A stretch of 35,191 nt of DNA, taken from positions 1-35,191 of IMG/VR virus record IMGVR_UViG_3300025010_000155; one strand, given 5' to 3'. Under the pieces are notes generated by a model. The model did no database searches and had not been told where the DNA came from. It was given only the letters and a program-made list of their open reading frames with translations. The stretch's first letter is position 1. Each line of letters starts with the position of its first letter. Positions 1-35,191 of the stretch are shown here, piece by piece. Both the position numbers and the translations under genes were made by a program. Source of the stretch: a virus.

Positions 1-29
1 AAAAAGGGGGTGTGTATTTTTACTATTTT

Positions 30-200
30 GGGACAAAAAAGGCCTAAAAATGGTCTAAAGCCGCATGATACCTGCATTTATTTTGGGACAAAGTTGGGAC
101 AGAATTTTGTGTGAAAAACAGACACAATTCAATTTATGCCCGTATTTACTGACTTTATCGTGGGACAAAGTTGGGACAAATTTGGGACAAATCTGGGACA
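30..200. repeat. Helically phased GGGACA repeat array
   Basis: Seven copies of GGGACA, most within TTGGGACAAA, start at 30, 85, 96, 162, 173, 184 and 195. Every start is in the same 11-bp phase: intervals are 55, 11, 66, 11, 11 and 11. An eighth copy at 282 is one base out of phase and lies in the palindrome. Sites on one DNA face suggest cooperative protein binding, as at an origin or an operator array. The function is inferred; the spacing is read directly. Confidence 0.85.
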
Positions 201-272
201 AAAATTGATTTTTTGTCTCACCTAATTATTACCAAATTTAATATATTCACATAAGTATGCTGTTTAATCAAA

Positions 273-314
273 ATTAAGTTTGGGACAAGTTTTAAAACTT
301 GTCCCAAACTTAAT
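273..314. repeat. 42-bp perfect palindrome containing GGGACA
   Basis: The stretch is its own reverse complement over 42 bp, centred between 293 and 294. Each arm contains TTTGGGACAAGTTTT, so two GGGACA sites face each other. There is no loop and no T-run, so a dimeric protein site or cruciform is more likely than a terminator. Confidence 0.9.
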
Positions 315-331
315 CCCAGACTTAATCCCAG
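308..331. repeat. Direct repeat ACTTAATCCCAG x2
   Basis: Two adjacent 12-nt copies follow the palindrome. TAATCCCAG is a degenerate form of the inverted TTGTCCCAAA half-site, so these may be weaker sites for the same binding protein. Confidence 0.6.
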
Positions 332-343
332 CTTAAAATCCAG

Positions 344-372
344 CAGACAAACACTATATCCAATGGTATATG
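344..372 (+). promoter_or_regulatory. Cassette promoter, CAGACA-N17-TATATG
   Basis: CAGACA (344-349) lies 17 bp before TATATG (367-372), itself preceded by TGG. It heads the 404 gene and matches the other left-end cassette promoters. The last -10 base is G, not the T expected for sigma-A. Confidence 0.7.
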
Positions 373-403
373 TAATATATAAACTAAAAGGAGGAGAATT
401 ATA

Positions 404-622
404 ATGATAAGAGGATTAGCAAAATTAGCAGCAAGAACAGTAATAGCAGTTGGAGTAGTAGAATTAGTAACAATAGGAACACCGAAAGCAGTGAAATATT
501 TAAAAGAAGGAAATTTACCCAATAAGGTGAGAACAACAGTTGGGGATGTTGTAGAGACATACACAAGTATAAGAAACAAACGGCAAGAGCAAGAAGTAGA
601 GAACTTAGTTAAAGAAGACTAA
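404..622 (+). CDS. Small cassette protein, hydrophobic N-terminus
   Basis: A 72-residue protein of unknown function. AAAGGAGGAG lies at good spacing before the ATG. The first half is hydrophobic and Ala/Val-rich (LAARTVIAVGVVELV), possibly one membrane segment or an amphipathic helix; the second half is charged and helical, ending EVENLVKED. It is the first member of the left cassette array, with its own promoter and a GCAA-loop terminator. Almost all codons end in A (GCA, GTA, ATA, AGA, TTA), unlike the leftward virion genes. It has one LAKLA, the only clear hydrophobic-x-K-x-A match found in the rightward genes. Confidence 0.8.
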   Translation: MIRGLAKLAARTVIAVGVVELVTIGTPKAVKYLKEGNLPNKVRTTVGDVVETYTSIRNKRQEQEVENLVKED

Positions 623-632
623 AGTATTACAT

Positions 633-653
633 TACCCGCAAGGGTATTTTTTT
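633..653 (+). terminator. Minimal terminator TACCC-GCAA-GGGTA-T7
   Basis: A 5-bp stem closed by a GCAA tetraloop is followed directly by seven T. The same design recurs after the other cassettes. Confidence 0.8.
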
Positions 654-655
654 AT

Positions 656-684
656 CGGACAGACTAACCTTTTAGTGGTATATG
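656..684 (+). promoter_or_regulatory. Cassette promoter without an ORF, CGGACA-N17-TATATG
   Basis: CGGACA (656-661), 17-bp spacer, TGG-TATATG (679-684). It matches its neighbours, but no ribosome-binding site or ORF follows; a hairpin terminator does. Confidence 0.75.
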
Positions 685-690
685 TAATGT

Positions 691-732
691 AGGAAGATAA
701 CATATAACTAACTAATATAGGTTATCTTTTTA
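691..732 (+). ncRNA. Candidate ~42-nt small RNA
   Basis: The predicted transcript from the 656-684 promoter starts near 691 and is almost entirely one hairpin. AAGATAAC (694-701) pairs with GTTATCTT (721-728), followed by TTT. All frames close at once and no ribosome-binding site is present. It occupies one slot in an otherwise protein-coding cassette array. An alternative is a cassette whose ORF was deleted. Confidence 0.5.
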
Positions 733-734
733 AT

Positions 735-762
735 GGGACAATTTTCATTTTAGTGGTATATG
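735..762 (+). promoter_or_regulatory. Cassette promoter, GGGACA-N16-TATATG
   Basis: GGGACA (735-740), identical to the phased array unit at 30-200, lies 16 bp before TATATG (757-762). It drives the 796 gene. Confidence 0.75.
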
Positions 763-795
763 TAATATATAAATAATAAAGGAGGAATAGAAATA

Positions 796-933
796 ATGGA
801 ATATTTAACAGTAACAAGTTTAGCAGTATTCGTGACAGGAATGTTAGTAGGAGCAGTAGTATTAAGACTAATGGATATAGCAGTAGAAAAAATACAGTTT
901 ACATTTATAGAAGAAGAGACTTACCCTGAATAA
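796..933 (+). CDS. 45-residue single-span membrane peptide
   Basis: The ATG sits after AAAGGAGG at normal spacing. Residues about 5-27 form one hydrophobic span (TSLAVFVTGMLVGAVVLRLM), followed by a short charged tail ending EEETYPE. It is a predicted small membrane protein of unknown role with strongly A-ending codons. The TAA stop lies inside the loop of its own weak terminator (TACC-CTGAATAA-GGTA then T6), so coding sequence and terminator overlap. A holin-like or host-takeover role is possible but unsupported. Confidence 0.7.
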   Translation: MEYLTVTSLAVFVTGMLVGAVVLRLMDIAVEKIQFTFIEEETYPE

Positions 934-944
934 GGTATTTTTTC
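923..944 (+). terminator. Weak terminator overlapping the 3' end of the 796 gene
   Basis: ACC(C) pairs with GGT(A) across a loop containing the stop codon, followed by TTTTTT. It is weaker than the GCAA-loop versions. Confidence 0.45.
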
Positions 945-945
945 C

Positions 946-974
946 CGGACAAATACCATATTTAATGGTATATG
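946..974 (+). promoter_or_regulatory. Cassette promoter, CGGACA-N17-TATATG
   Basis: CGGACA 946-951, TATATG 969-974, preceded by TGG. It drives the 1010 gene. Confidence 0.75.
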
Positions 975-1009
975 TAATGTAATAAAATAAACAAGGAGGC
1001 ACAACACAA

Positions 1010-1132
1010 ATGAATATATTTACAGCAAGTAATATAACAGCAGCAGTAATAGCAGCAGTAGTAGCAGTAGCAATAGACCCTATCATAGGATTAGTAGGAG
1101 GAATTGGAGCAAAGATATTTATAAAGGATTAA
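1010..1132 (+). CDS. 40-residue hydrophobic peptide with glycine zipper
   Basis: AAGGAGG precedes the ATG by about 11 bases. The peptide is mostly Ala/Val/Ile (ITAAVIAAVVAVAI), then GLVGGIGAKIFIKD, a short glycine-zipper stretch with a basic end. It is a predicted membrane peptide. It has its own promoter and a GCAA-loop terminator, and GCA/GTA/ATA codons dominate. Function unknown; small phage membrane proteins that disturb the host envelope are one possibility. Confidence 0.7.
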   Translation: MNIFTASNITAAVIAAVVAVAIDPIIGLVGGIGAKIFIKD

Positions 1133-1141
1133 ATAAAAATC

Positions 1142-1161
1142 TACCCGCAAGGGTATTTTTT
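1142..1161 (+). terminator. Minimal terminator TACCC-GCAA-GGGTA-T6
   Basis: Same 5-bp stem and GCAA loop as at 633, followed by six T. Confidence 0.8.
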
Positions 1162-1163
1162 CT

Positions 1164-1192
1164 CGGACAAAGGTTATTTTAGTTGGTATATG
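1164..1192 (+). promoter_or_regulatory. Cassette promoter, CGGACA-N17-TATATG
   Basis: CGGACA 1164-1169, TATATG 1187-1192. It drives the 1225 gene; the upstream terminator ends only two bases before the -35 element. Confidence 0.75.
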
Positions 1193-1224
1193 TAATATAT
1201 AGAATAAAAAGGAGGAATTACATA

Positions 1225-1407
1225 ATGGCAGAAACAATAGGAGAAATACAAGAAAGCGCAGCACAAGCAGCAAGAGAAGAACTATTTGAACAACAGCAAG
1301 AAAGAATGGTAGTAGCAATGGAAAGAATGGCAGCAGCTTTAGAGAATCAAACAGCAAGGGCAGAAGAAATGCTTGGAAAATTTGAAGAACTAATAAAATT
1401 AGCGTAA
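1225..1407 (+). CDS. Small coiled-coil protein
   Basis: A 60-residue protein. The ATG at 1225 is chosen over an upstream GTG at 1183 because AAAGGAGG lies just before it and the longer version would include the promoter. The sequence is almost wholly charged and helical (EIQESAAQAAREELFEQQQE, then heptad-like Leu/Met positions), a likely dimeric or trimeric coiled coil. No membrane span or enzymatic motif is seen. Codons are strongly A-ending, as in the other cassettes. Function unknown. Confidence 0.75.
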   Translation: MAETIGEIQESAAQAAREELFEQQQERMVVAMERMAAALENQTARAEEMLGKFEELIKLA

Positions 1408-1418
1408 TGATTAAAATC

Positions 1419-1438
1419 TACCCGCAAGGGTATTTTTT
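1419..1438 (+). terminator. Minimal terminator TACCC-GCAA-GGGTA-T6
   Basis: Third copy of the GCAA-loop terminator. The next promoter's CGGACA begins at 1441. Confidence 0.8.
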
Positions 1439-1440
1439 CT

Positions 1441-1468
1441 CGGACAATATATTTTTTAATGGTATATG
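1441..1468 (+). promoter_or_regulatory. Cassette promoter, CGGACA-N16-TATATG
   Basis: CGGACA 1441-1446, TATATG 1463-1468. It drives the 1502 gene. Confidence 0.75.
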
Positions 1469-16336: not shown

Positions 16337-16353
16337 TTAGCTAATTTATTAAT

Positions 16354-16370
16354 GGTATAAGTTATATATA
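16354..16370 (+). promoter_or_regulatory. Phage promoter GGTATAAG, gene at 16394
   Basis: GGTATAAGTTATATATA, then AAAAGGAGG and the start. TATAAG lies at 16356-16361. Confidence 0.7.
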
Positions 16371-16393
16371 AACGAAAAGGAGGAATTTTTTTG

Positions 16394-16978
16394 ATGTCAA
16401 ATAACTTAAACCAACTTGTAGAGGAATCTAAAGAGTTAACCAAAGCTATTACATCTCTCCAGGAGGACCAGTCACACGTTTTGTCTGGCGCGATCAATAG
16501 AATAGTTGCGTTAAACGCATCCCTGCTGGAAATCATCTACGAGGAGATAGCAAGTGTTAACATTAAAATGGACGCTTTGTTAGAGGATTTTGGCATTGAG
16601 TGTCCGGCCGCCGCAACTGCCTCAACAAAGGTAATAGAGGTAAAGAAGGCAGATATTAAACCCCCTGTCGCCAACAGGAAGGTATATACTGTTAATCTCT
16701 CAGATGTGAATAATAAGTTGCGGAGTCGCGTTGCTTCTGTGCCCATAATTAAGCAGAAGTTGTTTTTCTTTGAAAAAGTAAGAAGAATACTGGCAGGGCT
16801 GCCCTCGGATTCATTTAAATGCGAGGTACTGAAGGTTAACTTTCCTAAAATAACTGGGTACATACACAAAAGCCCTCGGCAATTATGGCGTGGGTTTGCC
16901 GCGTTTAAGAGGGATTATAATGACTTTATAGAGGGAAAAGGCGTATGGGGTACTTTCGACGTACGCTTCACAGACTAA
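16394..16978 (+). CDS. Unknown protein, coiled-coil N-terminus
   Basis: The ATG at 16394 is preferred over the adjacent TTG at 16391; AAAAGGAGG is upstream. The 194-residue product has an N-terminal helical region (NQLVEESKELTKAITSLQED and beyond), a Pro/Ala linker and a basic C-terminal domain with many aromatics (ITGYIHKSPRQLWRGFAAFK). No family is recognised. It is the first gene of a three-gene rightward operon (next ATG one base after the stop). No K-x-A motif matches, consistent with a non-virion protein. Confidence 0.7.
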   Translation: MSNNLNQLVEESKELTKAITSLQEDQSHVLSGAINRIVALNASLLEIIYEEIASVNIKMDALLEDFGIECPAAATASTKVIEVKKADIKPPVANRKVYTVNLSDVNNKLRSRVASVPIIKQKLFFFEKVRRILAGLPSDSFKCEVLKVNFPKITGYIHKSPRQLWRGFAAFKRDYNDFIEGKGVWGTFDVRFTD

Positions 16979-16979
16979 T

Positions 16980-17375
16980 ATGGATTTTAGAATAATATTT
17001 TATGCAGATTCTGATAAAGATGTAGTTAACTTACCAGGAGTCCCAGTAGGGCTGACATTATTAAAGAAGCACTACCCTGCAGCTTTACGCTCCGTATCTG
17101 ATAGAACTCAATTAGTTCCAGACATAAGATTCTTACACTCACACGTAGTGCCACTAACATTAACTATGCCCGAGGTTAGACGGCTAAATGAGGAGTTTGG
17201 TATATTTGAGGTTGATTTTGAATTAAATGACTTTTTCTATTTAAAATTAGTTAAATCAGAGAGAAAGCACGAATTAGTCTATACGCTGGATAGAGATAAG
17301 CTATTCACTACATGGATATCGGCAGGAGCTCCTAAAGAATGGCATAACCTTTCTTTAGGGAAAGGGGCGGAGTAA
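16980..17375 (+). CDS. Unknown protein, paralogue of the next gene
   Basis: A 131-residue protein, MDFRIIFYADSDKDVVNLPG. It shares its plan with 17380-17820: an opening RIIFY/RVMFY strand, a leucine/lysine helix (LTLLKKHYP / IKALKHFLP), then LTLTMPEVRRLNEEFGIFE matching TLPQYTVIDLNNKFGYFE. Likely an alpha/beta fold. It starts one base after the previous stop, so it is translationally coupled. Function unknown. Confidence 0.7.
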   Translation: MDFRIIFYADSDKDVVNLPGVPVGLTLLKKHYPAALRSVSDRTQLVPDIRFLHSHVVPLTLTMPEVRRLNEEFGIFEVDFELNDFFYLKLVKSERKHELVYTLDRDKLFTTWISAGAPKEWHNLSLGKGAE

Positions 17376-17379
17376 TCAT

Positions 17380-17820
17380 ATGTTTAGAGTTATGTTTTAT
17401 CTTGATCATCCTATACAGGTGTGTGCAGGTCGTGTTGGAATTAAAGCATTGAAGCATTTTTTACCTCAGCTTTCTAATACCATTACGGCGCCTATTCCTT
17501 ATATGAATACCACTTTTAAGAATCTCCGATGCACAGAGGTAAGTTTTACTTTGCCACAATATACAGTAATAGATCTGAATAATAAATTTGGATATTTTGA
17601 GACCTCCGGTTATTTGTCTATTTCGGTATCCGCACCCGTGGACTTCCTGGTCACCTTAGAGTACGACGAAAAAGGCAAGCAATTCGAACTCAAATTTAAT
17701 CAAAACTTGATGGAAGCATTGTGGGCGGAATGCGGATACCCCTCTCCTTGGAGTAAAATACCGGATGAAATTAAACAAAGGTTCACCGCACCTAATTCTG
17801 TAGAGTTGCTGCTAAAATAA
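17380..17820 (+). CDS. Unknown protein, paralogue of the previous gene
   Basis: A 146-residue protein beginning MFRVMFYLDHPIQVCAGRVG and related to the 16980-17375 product (see the shared LNxxFGxFE segment). GGGGCGGAG precedes the ATG, four bases after the previous stop. It ends just before a strong palindromic hairpin. Tandem duplication and divergence explain the pair. No domain recognised. Confidence 0.7.
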   Translation: MFRVMFYLDHPIQVCAGRVGIKALKHFLPQLSNTITAPIPYMNTTFKNLRCTEVSFTLPQYTVIDLNNKFGYFETSGYLSISVSAPVDFLVTLEYDEKGKQFELKFNQNLMEALWAECGYPSPWSKIPDEIKQRFTAPNSVELLLK

Positions 17821-17823
17821 TTG

Positions 17824-17847
17824 TATGCCCCGCGTACGCGGGGCATA
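17824..17847. terminator. 24-bp perfect GC-rich palindrome, probable terminator
   Basis: ATGCCCCGCGT and its exact complement form a very stable hairpin just after the 17820 stop. A T-rich run begins about 14 bp later, so it is an imperfect intrinsic terminator. Confidence 0.6.
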
Positions 17848-17867
17848 ATACAACACCTCTTTTTCAT

Positions 17868-17884
17868 GGTATATGTTATATATA
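17868..17884 (+). promoter_or_regulatory. Phage promoter GGTATATG, gene at 17910
   Basis: GGTATATGTTATATATA, then AAAAAGGAGG. TATATG lies at 17870-17875. Confidence 0.7.
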
Positions 17885-17909
17885 GAATAAAAAGGAGGAA
17901 ATAATTAAA

Positions 17910-18107
17910 ATGGAAGATAATAAAAAAGAAATGAAAAATATAGCAGAAACAAAGATTATATTAATAAAGCAGTACCTCGCAGCACTAGACGTAGAAGTAG
18001 CACGATTAAACATAGAAACTAAGTATGAAGAGATCAAAGTAACAGCTAGATTAGCAGGTCACTTAGAAAGCGAGTTGTTAAGCTTAAAGAGATTAAAGTT
18101 ATATTGA
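17910..18107 (+). CDS. Small helical cassette protein
   Basis: A 65-residue charged helical protein (MEDNKKEMKNIAETKIILIK and onward), probably a coiled coil. AAAAAGGAGG lies upstream and an AACCC-GCAA-GGGTT terminator follows directly. It is the first of four small cassettes at 17.9-18.9 kb. A-ending codons dominate. Function unknown. Confidence 0.75.
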   Translation: MEDNKKEMKNIAETKIILIKQYLAALDVEVARLNIETKYEEIKVTARLAGHLESELLSLKRLKLY

Positions 18108-18109
18108 TT

Positions 18110-18129
18110 AACCCGCAAGGGTTTTTTTT
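18110..18129 (+). terminator. Minimal terminator AACCC-GCAA-GGGTT-T
   Basis: A 5-bp stem, GCAA loop and long T-run, the same design as in the left array. Confidence 0.8.
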
Positions 18130-18141
18130 CACCCTTTTAGT

Positions 18142-18158
18142 GGTATAAGTTATTTATA
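18142..18158 (+). promoter_or_regulatory. Phage promoter GGTATAAG, gene at 18180
   Basis: Preceded by ACCCTTTTAGT, a block repeated before the next two promoters. TATAAG at 18144-18149. Confidence 0.7.
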
Positions 18159-18179
18159 AACTAAAAGGAGGAAAATAAA

Positions 18180-18401
18180 ATGGAGTACAATGAGAGACAT
18201 AAATTGGAAATGAAGAGATTAGACGAGATAGATAGGAATATAAGTGAACTAAGTAAAGAAAATACTAGCTTAATGGAAGAGTCAAGGCAATATATCAAAA
18301 AAGGTGAATTACCGCCAACTAATATACTTGAGAGATTACAGGAAATACAGTTAGAGTTAGGTAAGTACAGTAGTAAATTGATAAAATTAAGTAACCCGTA
18401 A
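18180..18401 (+). CDS. Small coiled-coil cassette protein
   Basis: A 73-residue, strongly charged helical protein (KLEMKRLDEIDRNISELSKE and on), a clear coiled coil. The stop codon TAA (18399-18401) lies inside the loop of the terminator AACCC-GTAA-GGGTT, so the ribosome would stop on the terminator hairpin. Its 5' region is nearly identical to those of the next two genes. Function unknown. Confidence 0.75.
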   Translation: MEYNERHKLEMKRLDEIDRNISELSKENTSLMEESRQYIKKGELPPTNILERLQEIQLELGKYSSKLIKLSNP

Positions 18402-18412
18402 GGGTTTTCTTT
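18393..18412 (+). terminator. Terminator with stop codon in its loop
   Basis: AACCC-GTAA-GGGTT then TTCTTTTT; the loop GTAA contains the TAA stop of the 18180 gene. Confidence 0.7.
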
Positions 18413-18427
18413 TTAAACCCTTTTAGT

Positions 18428-18444
18428 GGTATAAGTTATGTATT
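18428..18444 (+). promoter_or_regulatory. Phage promoter GGTATAAG, gene at 18467
   Basis: ACCCTTTTAGT, then GGTATAAGTTATGTATT. TATAAG at 18430-18435. Confidence 0.7.
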
Positions 18445-18466
18445 AAATTAAAAGGAGGAAAATAAA

Positions 18467-18655
18467 ATGGATAAGAAAACAGAGGCTAAAGTAATGGAGT
18501 TAAGAAAATTTAGTGAAGTAGTATTAGGAAGATTAGGTAATAAGAATATACCACTACTGACAAACAGGGAAGTAGTAAACAAATTAAAGGAGATAGCAGC
18601 AAAAATAGAGGATCAACTAGTAGAAAAATTAGATGTTATAGACAGTAAACCCTAA
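18467..18655 (+). CDS. Small helical cassette protein
   Basis: A 62-residue charged helical protein (MDKKTEAKVMELRKFSEVVL and on; ends KLDVIDSKP). AAAAGGAGG precedes the start. The TAA stop (18653-18655) again lies in the terminator loop (AAACCC-TAACAA-GGGTTT). Same promoter and leader block as its neighbours. Function unknown. Confidence 0.75.
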   Translation: MDKKTEAKVMELRKFSEVVLGRLGNKNIPLLTNREVVNKLKEIAAKIEDQLVEKLDVIDSKP

Positions 18656-18668
18656 CAAGGGTTTTCTT
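18647..18668 (+). terminator. Terminator with stop codon in its loop
   Basis: AAACCC-TAACAA-GGGTTT then TCTTT. The loop begins with the TAA stop of the 18467 gene. Confidence 0.7.
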
Positions 18669-18683
18669 TCCACCCTTTTTAGT

Positions 18684-18700
18684 GGTATAAGTTAGTTATA
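18684..18700 (+). promoter_or_regulatory. Phage promoter GGTATAAG, gene at 18724
   Basis: ACCCTTTTTAGT, then GGTATAAGTTAGTTATA. TATAAG at 18686-18691. Confidence 0.7.
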
Positions 18701-18723
18701 AATTAAAAGGAGGAAAATAAACA

Positions 18724-30892: not shown

Positions 30893-31420
30893 GTGAATTT
30901 AGATTTAACCGTAAAAAATACTTCAGCTAAAGCAAAACTGTTATTCGCCCTGGATAGTAGTCTTAAGACCATAGAAATGGTATATTACCCCTCAATAAAA
31001 ACAATAGTATTTAGGGTATGGTCAAAATGGGAAATGATAAAACATAGTAGTTACTTTACTTTTCTAAGTGTTAAAGCCTGTGACTTTTTATTAACTCTGA
31101 GTAAATTGGGCGTTATAGTCAAAAATGGCGAGGATAATAAAGACATTGTTAATTATTTAAAGTTGGAATACACCTGTCCTAAGGAATTTGTTTATTCTAC
31201 CCTTGTTGGCCCCGTGAAACCTATTGGGCCACATGTTTCTGAAATTTTTATGCATACAGCTGTCTACGAATCTTCCTTAAATAAGGGCGAAGTGTTAAAT
31301 TCTTTCAGAGCAGTTATAAAAATAGAAGAATTGTTTCACGCACTAGAGTGTTTAGGAGTGTTTACGACAGTAAGAAGAGAGAGAGAGTATTTAAAACTTA
31401 GAGAGGCAGGTAAAAAATAG
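30893..31420 (+). CDS. Unknown protein, MNLNL family distant member 3
   Basis: A 175-residue protein with a GTG start directly after the previous TAG. It shares the FLLTLSKLGVIVKN and ALECLGVFTTVRRER segments with the two upstream genes, but little else, so it is a divergent third copy. Its stop overlaps the next gene's start (TAGTG). Function unknown. Confidence 0.65.
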   Translation: MNLDLTVKNTSAKAKLLFALDSSLKTIEMVYYPSIKTIVFRVWSKWEMIKHSSYFTFLSVKACDFLLTLSKLGVIVKNGEDNKDIVNYLKLEYTCPKEFVYSTLVGPVKPIGPHVSEIFMHTAVYESSLNKGEVLNSFRAVIKIEELFHALECLGVFTTVRREREYLKLREAGKK

Positions 31421-32409
31421 TGAATACGCCGTTACAAAGTTATTTATTTTCCACAGATTGGCATGTTACAGATAATTGGCCAGAAAGCAGAAAAGACAAC
31501 TACTTAAATACTATTATGGGTAAAGTTGAGTTTGTTGTGTCATTGGCTAATAAATTGGATGCCCACCTCCTTTTAGGAGGAGACTTAGTGGATAAGTACA
31601 ACAGTAAGCCTAAAATTATAAACTTACTAATTAGTCAGTTGATAAAAGCCAAACAGGAGGTGTTTGGAATCATTGGTAATCACGACATATTCGGGCACAA
31701 TCATGAGGTTATTAAACGTGTTATACTTGGTGCTCTCTTTGAAAGTAAAGTAGTAACATTGTTGGATGCCAGACCGCGTATTATTACTAAAAATGGGGTG
31801 TCAGTACAGTTAACAGGAACAAATTACACTCCGGATATTGATGTTAAGGGGGTTTCTTCTTATAGCATTGTGAAGGCACCGGAGGCTAATTTCGCTATAC
31901 ACCTGGTACACGGCCTTTTAGTTGAAAGACACTTACCGGTGATGAAGTCAAGAAATTACACCCTCCTTACAGAAGTAATTACTCGGGCGGATGTATTATG
32001 TTGCGGGCATGAGCATACAGGATTTGGCGTGAGACTCTTTGAGAATGTTATATTTACAAACCCCGGAGCCTTAGGCAGAATAAATGCTTCCTTAAAAGAA
32101 TTAAGAAGAATGCCTTTTGTTTCATATATTAAGGTATATTCTGACCACGTTGAAGTGGACTTAATTGCGGTACCCGCCGCCACTGGTCCGGAAGTGTTAA
32201 GTCGCCAGAAGATAATTGAGACACTAAAGAGAAAGAAAATGCTTACGGAGTTTAAGGATAATTTAAGCCTAACGGATATTGGGAGAGGGTCCCTAACACT
32301 GAAAGATATTTTAGAAGAGAAGGCTCGGCTAGGAAATGTAGGCGAAGATGTCGTCAACGTAAGCCTACGGGCGATAAAAGAGTATGAGGAGGAACAACAT
32401 TCATGCTGA
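31420..32409 (+). CDS. Mre11/SbcD-like DNA nuclease subunit
   Basis: A 329-residue metallophosphoesterase. Motifs in order: D13-W-H15 (STDWHV), G-D-L-V-D (54-58), G-N-H-D (86-89), H164 (VHGLL), and G-H-E-H (196-199), the complete two-metal site of the Mre11/SbcD/T4 gp47 family, which works with a Rad50-like ATPase on DNA ends. The GTG start overlaps the previous stop. The C-terminal ~90 residues would hold the capping or ATPase-contact region. The Rad50-like partner is encoded 136 bp downstream. Confidence 0.88.
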   Translation: MNTPLQSYLFSTDWHVTDNWPESRKDNYLNTIMGKVEFVVSLANKLDAHLLLGGDLVDKYNSKPKIINLLISQLIKAKQEVFGIIGNHDIFGHNHEVIKRVILGALFESKVVTLLDARPRIITKNGVSVQLTGTNYTPDIDVKGVSSYSIVKAPEANFAIHLVHGLLVERHLPVMKSRNYTLLTEVITRADVLCCGHEHTGFGVRLFENVIFTNPGALGRINASLKELRRMPFVSYIKVYSDHVEVDLIAVPAATGPEVLSRQKIIETLKRKKMLTEFKDNLSLTDIGRGSLTLKDILEEKARLGNVGEDVVNVSLRAIKEYEEEQHSC

Positions 32410-32588
32410 TAAACGGTAAAGAGTTTAAACCAATGCAATCTTTTTTAGTAACTACTTATCAATGCCCAGAGTGCAGTAACTGTTTTACGTTTGATCAAGC
32501 GTTAACACATGACTGCACTAAATTGCTTGGTAAGGAGGTAAGAAATGGCCGACACATCAAGAAGAATAGAAAAAATACGATTATATAG
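32403..32588 (+). CDS. Zinc-finger microprotein between nuclease and ATPase genes
   Basis: A 61-residue protein. GAGGAGG precedes the ATG. CPECSNCFTFDQALTHDC (21-38) gives C-x2-C and H-x-C, a compact zinc finger, then a basic tail (RNGRHIKKNRKN). It overlaps the nuclease gene by 7 bp and the ATPase gene by 44 bp, in a different frame from each. Good start signal and a structured motif make it likely real. It may bind the nuclease complex or DNA ends; that is inference. Confidence 0.6.
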   Translation: MLINGKEFKPMQSFLVTTYQCPECSNCFTFDQALTHDCTKLLGKEVRNGRHIKKNRKNTII

Positions 32589-33828
32589 ATTTCAGTCTTA
32601 CGTCGATAATACTATAGAGTTAGACGCTAAGACTACAGCTATTGTTGGCAAGACAGACGCAGGTAAAAGTGCTATAACTCGTGCACTTTATTGGGTATTG
32701 TACAATAAACCCCTACGTGTTGATTACACTATGTGGGGTGAAAAGCATTGCTTTGTAACCGTCACTTTTAGTGACGGGGTAGAGATAACTAGAGGGCGTA
32801 AAAACACCGAAAATTACTACGTGCTTAAGGACATCGAAGGAAATTCTGAAACATTTAAAGGGTTTGGCGCTGAAGTTCCTCCTAAAGTGATGGAGGCGCA
32901 CGGCATGTACCTGCTTCATTATGTAGACGGTAATGACACAACACTTAATATATCTTGCCAGCTTGACCCTGTATTTATGCTCGAAGAGAGTGCTACTCGC
33001 AGGGCAAAAGCAGTAGGTATTGTAAGTGGCGCAGATAAGGTAGACGGCGGTGTAATGAAAGTTAACGGCTGGTTAAAAGAAGCTAATGAAGAGAAAAAAG
33101 ATTTAACAAAGAGAATATCAGATATAACAAAACATCTAGAAAGCTACGCTTATTTAGATAATTTAGAAGTAGCTATAACATCTCTGAGTAATTTACTAAG
33201 GAGTATCTCCTCTAACGAGTCTTTTTACTCTAACTTATTGACTATTTTTACCTCTCTAAAAGGATTAGAGGTTCAGAGGGAGGAAATGAGAACTTTTCTA
33301 GCTTTTGAAGAAAAGTATATTTCTCTAGAGGATATGCATGTGAGGCTGTCCGTGCTGGAAAGTAGGAGAAACACCATTAATAATACGTACGGTGTTTATG
33401 CAAAATTACTCACAGATAAAAGAGAATTATATAAAGTGATGAATCAAGAACCTTTACTTTCTACATTAGCGGATCACTGCGCTAAAATTTCCGGGTTAGT
33501 GGGGGACAAAACCAAAATAGAATCCCTTTTCGTGGAGTATGCTTCCTTAGAAAGACAAATCGCCTCGCTAACAATCATTTTAGGTAATGTAACTTCCTTA
33601 AATAGCATAGTGAGTTTATTAAAAGACATTGACGAAAAAGTACATAAAATCACTAAGTTAAAGAATGTATATGACAATTACTTACTTCTCCAGGAAAGGA
33701 TTTTTAAAGGAAATAACATATTAAGTAAGTTAGGCGAGGACCTGAGTATAGTGACTGATAAGTATTATGGGTATTTAAACATAGCGGGGGAATGTCCTTT
33801 CTGCAACACTGCTTTAAATAGGGGGTAA
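32545..33828 (+). CDS. Half-length Rad50/SbcC-like ATPase ending at a zinc hook
   Basis: A 427-residue protein. AAGGAGG precedes the ATG. It opens with the Rad50 N-lobe (IRLYRFQSYVDNTIELD, Walker A GKTDAGKS at 35-42), continues with a long coiled coil and ends at CPFC (C417, C420), the CxxC zinc hook, seven residues before the stop. A full Rad50/SbcC continues through a second coiled coil to a C-lobe with the signature motif and Walker B; that half is absent, and the next gene is unrelated. A split or minimal Rad50 would need another source of the C-lobe. Similar half-length phage ATPases may exist. The partner nuclease lies just upstream. Confidence 0.8.
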   Translation: MADTSRRIEKIRLYRFQSYVDNTIELDAKTTAIVGKTDAGKSAITRALYWVLYNKPLRVDYTMWGEKHCFVTVTFSDGVEITRGRKNTENYYVLKDIEGNSETFKGFGAEVPPKVMEAHGMYLLHYVDGNDTTLNISCQLDPVFMLEESATRRAKAVGIVSGADKVDGGVMKVNGWLKEANEEKKDLTKRISDITKHLESYAYLDNLEVAITSLSNLLRSISSNESFYSNLLTIFTSLKGLEVQREEMRTFLAFEEKYISLEDMHVRLSVLESRRNTINNTYGVYAKLLTDKRELYKVMNQEPLLSTLADHCAKISGLVGDKTKIESLFVEYASLERQIASLTIILGNVTSLNSIVSLLKDIDEKVHKITKLKNVYDNYLLLQERIFKGNNILSKLGEDLSIVTDKYYGYLNIAGECPFCNTALNRG

Positions 33829-35126: not shown

Positions 35127-35191
35127 ATGGATAAAAAATATAAAATTCACGAGTTTGCAGGACTTTTAGGAGTGTGTATGAAAACACTCCA
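35127..35191 (+). CDS. IS607-family serine recombinase, N-terminal fragment
   Basis: Only 21 residues are visible. MDKKYKIHEFAGLLGV followed by KTL matches the MerR-type helix-turn-helix that opens IS607-family TnpA serine recombinases (consensus EFAxLxGVSxKTLQRWD). The partial gene runs off the window; a TnpB gene often follows in this family. A plain MerR-type regulator is the alternative. Confidence 0.6.
   Translation, partial: MDKKYKIHEFAGLLGVCMKTL

What the first reader, a model, noticed from the sequence alone, without database searches (positions are those of the whole stretch)
30..314. Phased 11-bp GGGACA array plus palindrome, matching cassette -35 elements
Seven GGGACA sites share one helical phase over 165 bp, and a 42-bp palindrome carries the sequence in both directions. 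The same element, CGGACA or GGGACA, is the -35 of the adjacent cassette promoters. One protein may bind both the array and the promoters, linking an origin or operator to the cassette genes.
Basis: partly seen in the sequence, partly recalled or inferred. Interest (0 to 1): 0.7.

Follow-up and report, generated by a model that had tools for sequence, protein, structure and literature searches.

The report
Iteron-like repeat cluster, probable phage origin
A phage fragment carries nine copies of the short word GGGACA around a very AT-rich gap, a layout that best matches a DNA replication origin placed just after an initiator gene, although an integration site remains a serious alternative.

Summary
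The repeat cluster is real. GGGACA lies on the + strand at 30, 85, 96, 162, 173, 184 and 195, all spaced by multiples of 11 bp. A perfect 42-bp palindrome (273-314) carries the word once in each direction. "One helical phase" is overstated: 165 bp is about 15.7 turns, and long-range register is at chance level in related arrays. The promoter link fails: the shared letters are the GACA half of ordinary -35 boxes.

Database scans show two main contexts for GGGACA spaced 11 bp apart. Sparse direct pairs sit beside tyrosine integrases or tRNA 3' ends, so they look like integrase arm sites. Dense, two-orientation clusters sit directly 3' of VapE, D5 or AAA_25 replication genes (7 of 13 dense loci, 0 of 93 sparse). 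The window has nine copies, a 21% GC tract (201-272), and inverted copies beyond it. This matches the published SaPI/PICI origin plan: two iteron sets flanking an AT-rich region, 3' of the initiator gene.

Best reading: an iteron origin whose initiator gene lies off the contig's left end (0.5). Main rival: an attP arm array (0.25). Neither an initiator nor an integrase was found on the record, and related phages lack the array. No function was tested.

The parts
28..203 (+). First (direct) set: seven copies of TTGGGACAAA-like units, GGGACA at 30, 85, 96, 162, 173, 184, 195
   Evidence: top seven matrix scores in the record
201..272 (.). AT-rich tract between the two sets (21% GC), candidate melting region
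   Evidence: as low as the lowest 0.6% of 72-bp windows in the record
273..314 (.). Perfect 42-bp palindrome with one forward (282) and one reverse (300) GGGACA
   Evidence: strong hairpin, z -7.9
312..329 (-). Two degenerate reverse copies (AATCCCAGACT at 312, AATCCCAGCTT at 324), possible rest of the second set
   Evidence: Read directly; weak, below the matrix list
1..111 (+). Frame open from the contig edge to a stop at 109-111, which could be the 3' end of a gene that lies off the contig; 36 codons, not significant by itself
   Evidence: Six-frame translation
344..1468 (+). Six promoters (NNGACA, 16-17 bp, extended -10 TGGTATATG) of small-gene cassettes; judged not part of the array system

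Best explanation
The cluster is an iteron-type replication origin of the SaPI/PICI plan. An initiator helicase (VapE, D5 or AAA_25 type), encoded on the + strand just left of position 1 and cut off by the contig end, would bind the direct GGGACA copies at 30-200 and the inverted copies at 282-329. It would then melt the AT-rich stretch 201-272 between the two sets and load there. Shown: the copies, their spacing, the AT-rich tract, the inverted copy, and the association of such dense clusters elsewhere with replication genes. Inferred: that an initiator gene lies to the left, that it binds these copies, and that the region starts replication.
For: Among 106 non-redundant loci with the 11-bp pair, those with six or more GGGACA copies lie beside VapE-like, D5/DUF5906 or AAA_25 replication genes in 7 of 13 cases, those with fewer in 0 of 93 (Fisher p 7e-8, or 5e-5 without the three seed loci). 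In all seven the array lies just 3' of that gene. L063 shows copies, AT-rich tract, inverted copies in that order. Published SaPI/PICI origins lie immediately 3' of the initiator gene and always have two iteron sets flanking an AT-rich region (PMC6092414; PMC7581432). The window has nine exact copies and a 21% GC tract between a direct set and an inverted copy.
Against: No initiator gene is on the record; only 29 bp precede the first copy. The window is eight forward and one reverse, more one-sided than most replication-linked arrays. L068 shows that an integration site can hold seven copies. The close relatives L166 and L167 have no such array in the sequence held. The replication label was defined with seed proteins taken from dense loci.
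Confidence: 0.5

Rival explanations
1. The cluster is part of attP: the GGGACA copies are arm-type sites bound by the N-terminal domain of a tyrosine integrase encoded left of the contig edge. The recombination core lies off-contig, in the gap 102-161 (which holds an imperfect inverted repeat GAATTTTGTGTG/CAGACACAATTC), or in 201-272.
For: Integrases lie within 600 bp of the 11-bp pair in 34 of 69 viral loci against 1 of 20 controls with the reversed word. In genomes 22 of 66 loci have a tRNA 3' end facing the pair at 43-200 bp, against 1.7% of random positions in the same loci. L068 has an att-like layout: five copies in the 3' end of int, a tRNA-Ser-like fragment, two copies. Two Stappia loci carry the pair on opposite sides of a 45-bp tRNA-Arg repeat.
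Against: No integrase on the record. No tRNA-like core found: no tRNA or Rfam match. Integrase-linked loci mostly have 2-5 copies. Relatives show no integrase except one marginal hit in a distant one. The palindrome and the AT-rich tract are not needed.
Confidence: 0.25
2. The copies are an operator array or nucleoprotein site for a phage regulator of the small-gene cassettes, with no role in replication or integration.
For: The array lies directly upstream of the first cassette promoter (-35 at 344). Several -35 boxes read CGGACA or GGGACA.
Against: Only the GACA half is shared, at the normal -35 position; the first promoter, nearest the array, reads CAGACA; five sister cassettes lack GGACA; the identical -10 region in L159 lacks it too.
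Confidence: 0.13
3. The copies are the remains of a tandem 11-bp repeat, perhaps once coding, with no present function.
For: SLFN_AlbA_2 genes and a Lin1244_N gene carry 11-bp GGGACA repeats inside coding sequence. In-phase units at 41 and 52 (GGCCTAAAAAT, GGTCTAAAGCC) read like weak copies.
Against: No long reading frame crosses the array. Copies are exact over six or more bases while the spacers are unrelated. The AT-rich tract and the inverted copy are unexplained.
Confidence: 0.12

Closest known systems
SaPI/PICI replication origins (PMC6092414, PMC7581432)
   Same: Two sets of short copies flanking an AT-rich tract; the same position 3' of a replication gene in the related dense loci
   Different: Initiator gene not seen in the window; the second set is one exact inverted copy within a palindrome plus degenerate copies; host element is a phage fragment, not an island
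Arm-type sites of tyrosine integrase attP (e.g. Oenococcus prophages, PMC8074189; Cluster K mycobacteriophages, PMC3203893)
   Same: Short direct repeats of about 10-11 bp in groups; in related loci the same word lies beside integrases and tRNA ends
   Different: No integrase or core found; more copies than most; AT-rich tract and palindrome
GGGACA repeats in coding sequence (Lin1244_N gene of L039, SLFN_AlbA_2 genes)
   Same: Many direct copies about 11 bp apart
   Different: The window array is not inside a long reading frame

Membership tests
SaPI/PICI-type iteron origin | Multiple short repeats (iterons) in two sets | tested here: met
   Seven direct copies at 30-200, inverted copy at 300 beyond the tract; the second set is small
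SaPI/PICI-type iteron origin | AT-rich region between the sets | tested here: met
   201-272, 21% GC
SaPI/PICI-type iteron origin | Located immediately 3' of the replication initiation gene | tested here: inconclusive
   Contig begins 29 bp before the first copy; met in all seven dense replication-linked loci
SaPI/PICI-type iteron origin | Initiator binds the iterons; region supports replication | not testable with these tools
   Needs binding and plasmid maintenance tests
Tyrosine integrase attP | Integrase gene next to the site | tested here: inconclusive
   No PF00589 in the record, but the left neighbour is cut off
Tyrosine integrase attP | Core sequence identical to a host site, often a tRNA end | tested here: inconclusive
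   No tRNA or Rfam match; host unknown, so non-tRNA cores were not excluded
Tyrosine integrase attP | Arm-type repeats flanking the core | tested here: inconclusive
   Groups at 30-101 and 162-200, but the 60-bp gap is shorter than the spans seen in Stappia and L068
Array and cassette promoters bound by one regulator | Shared promoter element that is more than a normal -35 box | tested here: not met
   NNGACA at standard spacing, absent in sister cassettes

The most novel reading that the evidence does not exclude
GGGACA is one recognition word used, across bacteria and archaea, by two unrelated machines of mobile elements: integrase arm domains and VapE/D5/AAA_25-type replication initiators. 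In this phage one array could serve both, so that one word ties replication and integration together.
Probability: 0.08. Interest if true: 0.65.

Novelty: new member of a known kind. Interest (0 to 1): 0.4.

Why it matters
If it is an origin, it gives a sequence rule (dense, two-orientation GGGACA just 3' of a VapE, D5 or AAA_25 gene) that could be used to find phage and satellite origins in contigs. The sparse form of the same word marks likely integrase arms next to tRNA ends, which would help to call attachment sites of integrated elements. The two look alike and differ mainly in copy number and orientation, so the distinction is useful in practice.

Tried and rejected
Transposon-end reading of TGTCCC...GGGACA: no transposase family stood out in the Pfam tally near the 69 loci; integrases did. 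Literature searches for TGTCCCAA with transposons, and for TTGGGACA with attP, gave nothing relevant. Palindrome as a telomere-resolution site: considered for its length only and not tested further. Palindrome as a terminator: a strong hairpin (-31.6 kcal/mol, z -7.9), but no T run follows and it is not in the terminator scan. Global 11-bp phasing as a functional property: rejected. Close >< pairs as a mark of origins: only weakly different, 3 of 7 replication-linked against 4 of 53 integration-linked loci. Close relatives by single-protein search: none for portal or TerL; only the two-row portal alignment found them. Scans for the -10 motif gave three loci; two (L164, L165) share no detected protein with the window. 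My first preferred reading was attP; the copy-number comparison and the layout moved it to second place.

Full report
What is there. The record is an IMG/VR virus contig of 35191 bp, classed linear. Its first 330 bases hold seven + strand GGGACA copies at 30, 85, 96, 162, 173, 184 and 195, all in one 11-bp register, and a perfect 42-bp palindrome at 273-314 with one forward and one reverse copy. In 5000 shuffles of the same 400 bases no more than four copies appeared. A matrix made from the seven copies ranks the two palindrome copies next in the whole record. The tract 201-272 has 21% GC; only 0.6% of equal windows in the record are as low. Two degenerate reverse copies follow at 312 and 324 (read).

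What is not there. The array is not in one helical phase: 165 bp is 15.7 turns of 10.5 bp. Register between separated groups is at chance in 103 related loci. The promoter link is weak: six promoters before small genes have NNGACA 16-17 bp before an extended -10 (TGGTATATG), which is an ordinary -35 arrangement. Five further cassettes at 16.3-18.7 kb use nearly the same -10 without GGACA.

What the word means elsewhere. The pair TTGGGACA-NNN-TTGGGACA occurs in 69 IMG/VR loci, its reversed control in 20. Tyrosine integrases lie within 600 bp of the pair in 34 of 69 loci, against 1 of 20 controls. In the genome collection a 19-base version gives 66 loci over many phyla. Of these, 17 have an integrase within 700 bp, and 22 have a tRNA whose 3' end faces the pair at 43-200 bp. 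In Stappia taiwanensis a 45-bp tRNA-Arg repeat is followed by the pair in one locus and preceded by it in another, as in attL and attR, though the two lie on different contigs. L068 has an att-like layout: five copies in the 3' end of int, a tRNA-Ser-like fragment, two more copies. So sparse direct copies are most likely integrase arm sites. This rests on association, not on binding data.

A second context. Sorted by copy number, loci with six or more copies behave differently. Seven of 13 lie beside genes for VapE-like, D5/DUF5906 or AAA_25 replication proteins, against none of 93 with fewer copies (p 7e-8, or 5e-5 without the three seed loci). Those seven have copies in both orientations, and in all seven the array lies just 3' of that gene. 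L063 shows the layout well: gene end, copies, AT-rich tract, inverted copies. This is the published plan of SaPI/PICI origins. Another dense locus, L039, has 14 copies inside a Lin1244_N gene.

Where the window falls. It has nine exact copies, a direct set, the lowest-GC stretch of its neighbourhood, then an inverted copy. By copy number and layout it belongs with the dense, replication-linked group. By orientation (eight forward, one reverse) it is less typical, and L068 shows that an integration site can have seven copies. The gene that would decide lies left of the contig edge, 29 bp from the first copy. I therefore give 0.5 to an origin, 0.25 to attP, and the rest to regulatory or non-functional readings.

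The phage. Single-protein searches found no relatives. A portal alignment with L159 found L166 and L167, whose portals are about 55% identical and TerL 53-64%. Both carry bacterial-type multisubunit RNA polymerase genes near the portal; in L167 beta and beta-prime domains share one frame. No close GGGACA pair occurs in 12 related records, and no integrase except one marginal hit in a distant one. The two close relatives are incomplete, so absence of the array there is weak evidence.

Limits. The replication label used three seed proteins taken from dense loci. The scans conditioned on an 11-bp pair, so other spacings are under-sampled. The integrase model used to place genes was built from these loci, though PF00589 gave the record-level counts independently (45 of 69 loci against 3 of 20). 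Several loci are near-copies of each other; counts by sequence cluster are lower (16 of 44 clusters with an integrase, against 1 of 14). No binding or replication was tested.

Noticed in passing
L167:12430-17700, L166:16353-17669: The two closest relatives of this phage carry bacterial-type RNA polymerase genes near the portal; in L167 beta and beta-prime domains lie in one reading frame. The window's polymerase, if any, would lie left of position 1.
   Followed up: partly
L093, L098, L119, L142, L154 (around the pair): SLFN_AlbA_2 / Fic-like_C genes carry GGGACA repeats 11 bp apart inside coding sequence, read on the other strand as LSQVCPK-like repeats. Their purpose is unknown.
   Followed up: partly
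L068 around 1305-1600; L121 and L147 around the pair: Att-like sites with GGGACA arms: int, five copies, tRNA-Ser-like fragment, two copies (L068), and a tRNA-Arg repeat with the pair on opposite sides (Stappia taiwanensis).
   Followed up: yes
364-1480 and 16353-18706: Two classes of cassette promoter in one phage: TGGTATATGTAAT with a GACA -35, and TGGTATAAGTTAT (once TGGTATATGTTAT) without one. They might be read at different times or by different polymerases.
   Followed up: partly
L159:1472-1490 (-): The 19-nt string TGGTATATGTAATATATAA has one match in IMG/VR, just 3' of the portal gene of a distantly related phage (22% portal identity).
   Followed up: partly
31420-33828: SbcD-like phosphoesterase and SbcC-like ATPase genes. 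SbcCD cuts long palindromes, and this phage carries a perfect 42-bp palindrome; the link is not tested.
   Followed up: no
35129-35191: The right contig end begins a protein (MDKKYKIHEFAGLLGVCMKTLQ) that looks to me like the start of an IS607-type recombinase, from memory only; an insertion there might explain the contig break.
   Followed up: no
L160 end and L163:2483-2508: A long perfect palindrome with GGGACA (CCAGGACCTTGGGACACTTGC, mirrored) occurs in two IMG/VR contigs, perhaps a joined pair of element ends.
   Followed up: no
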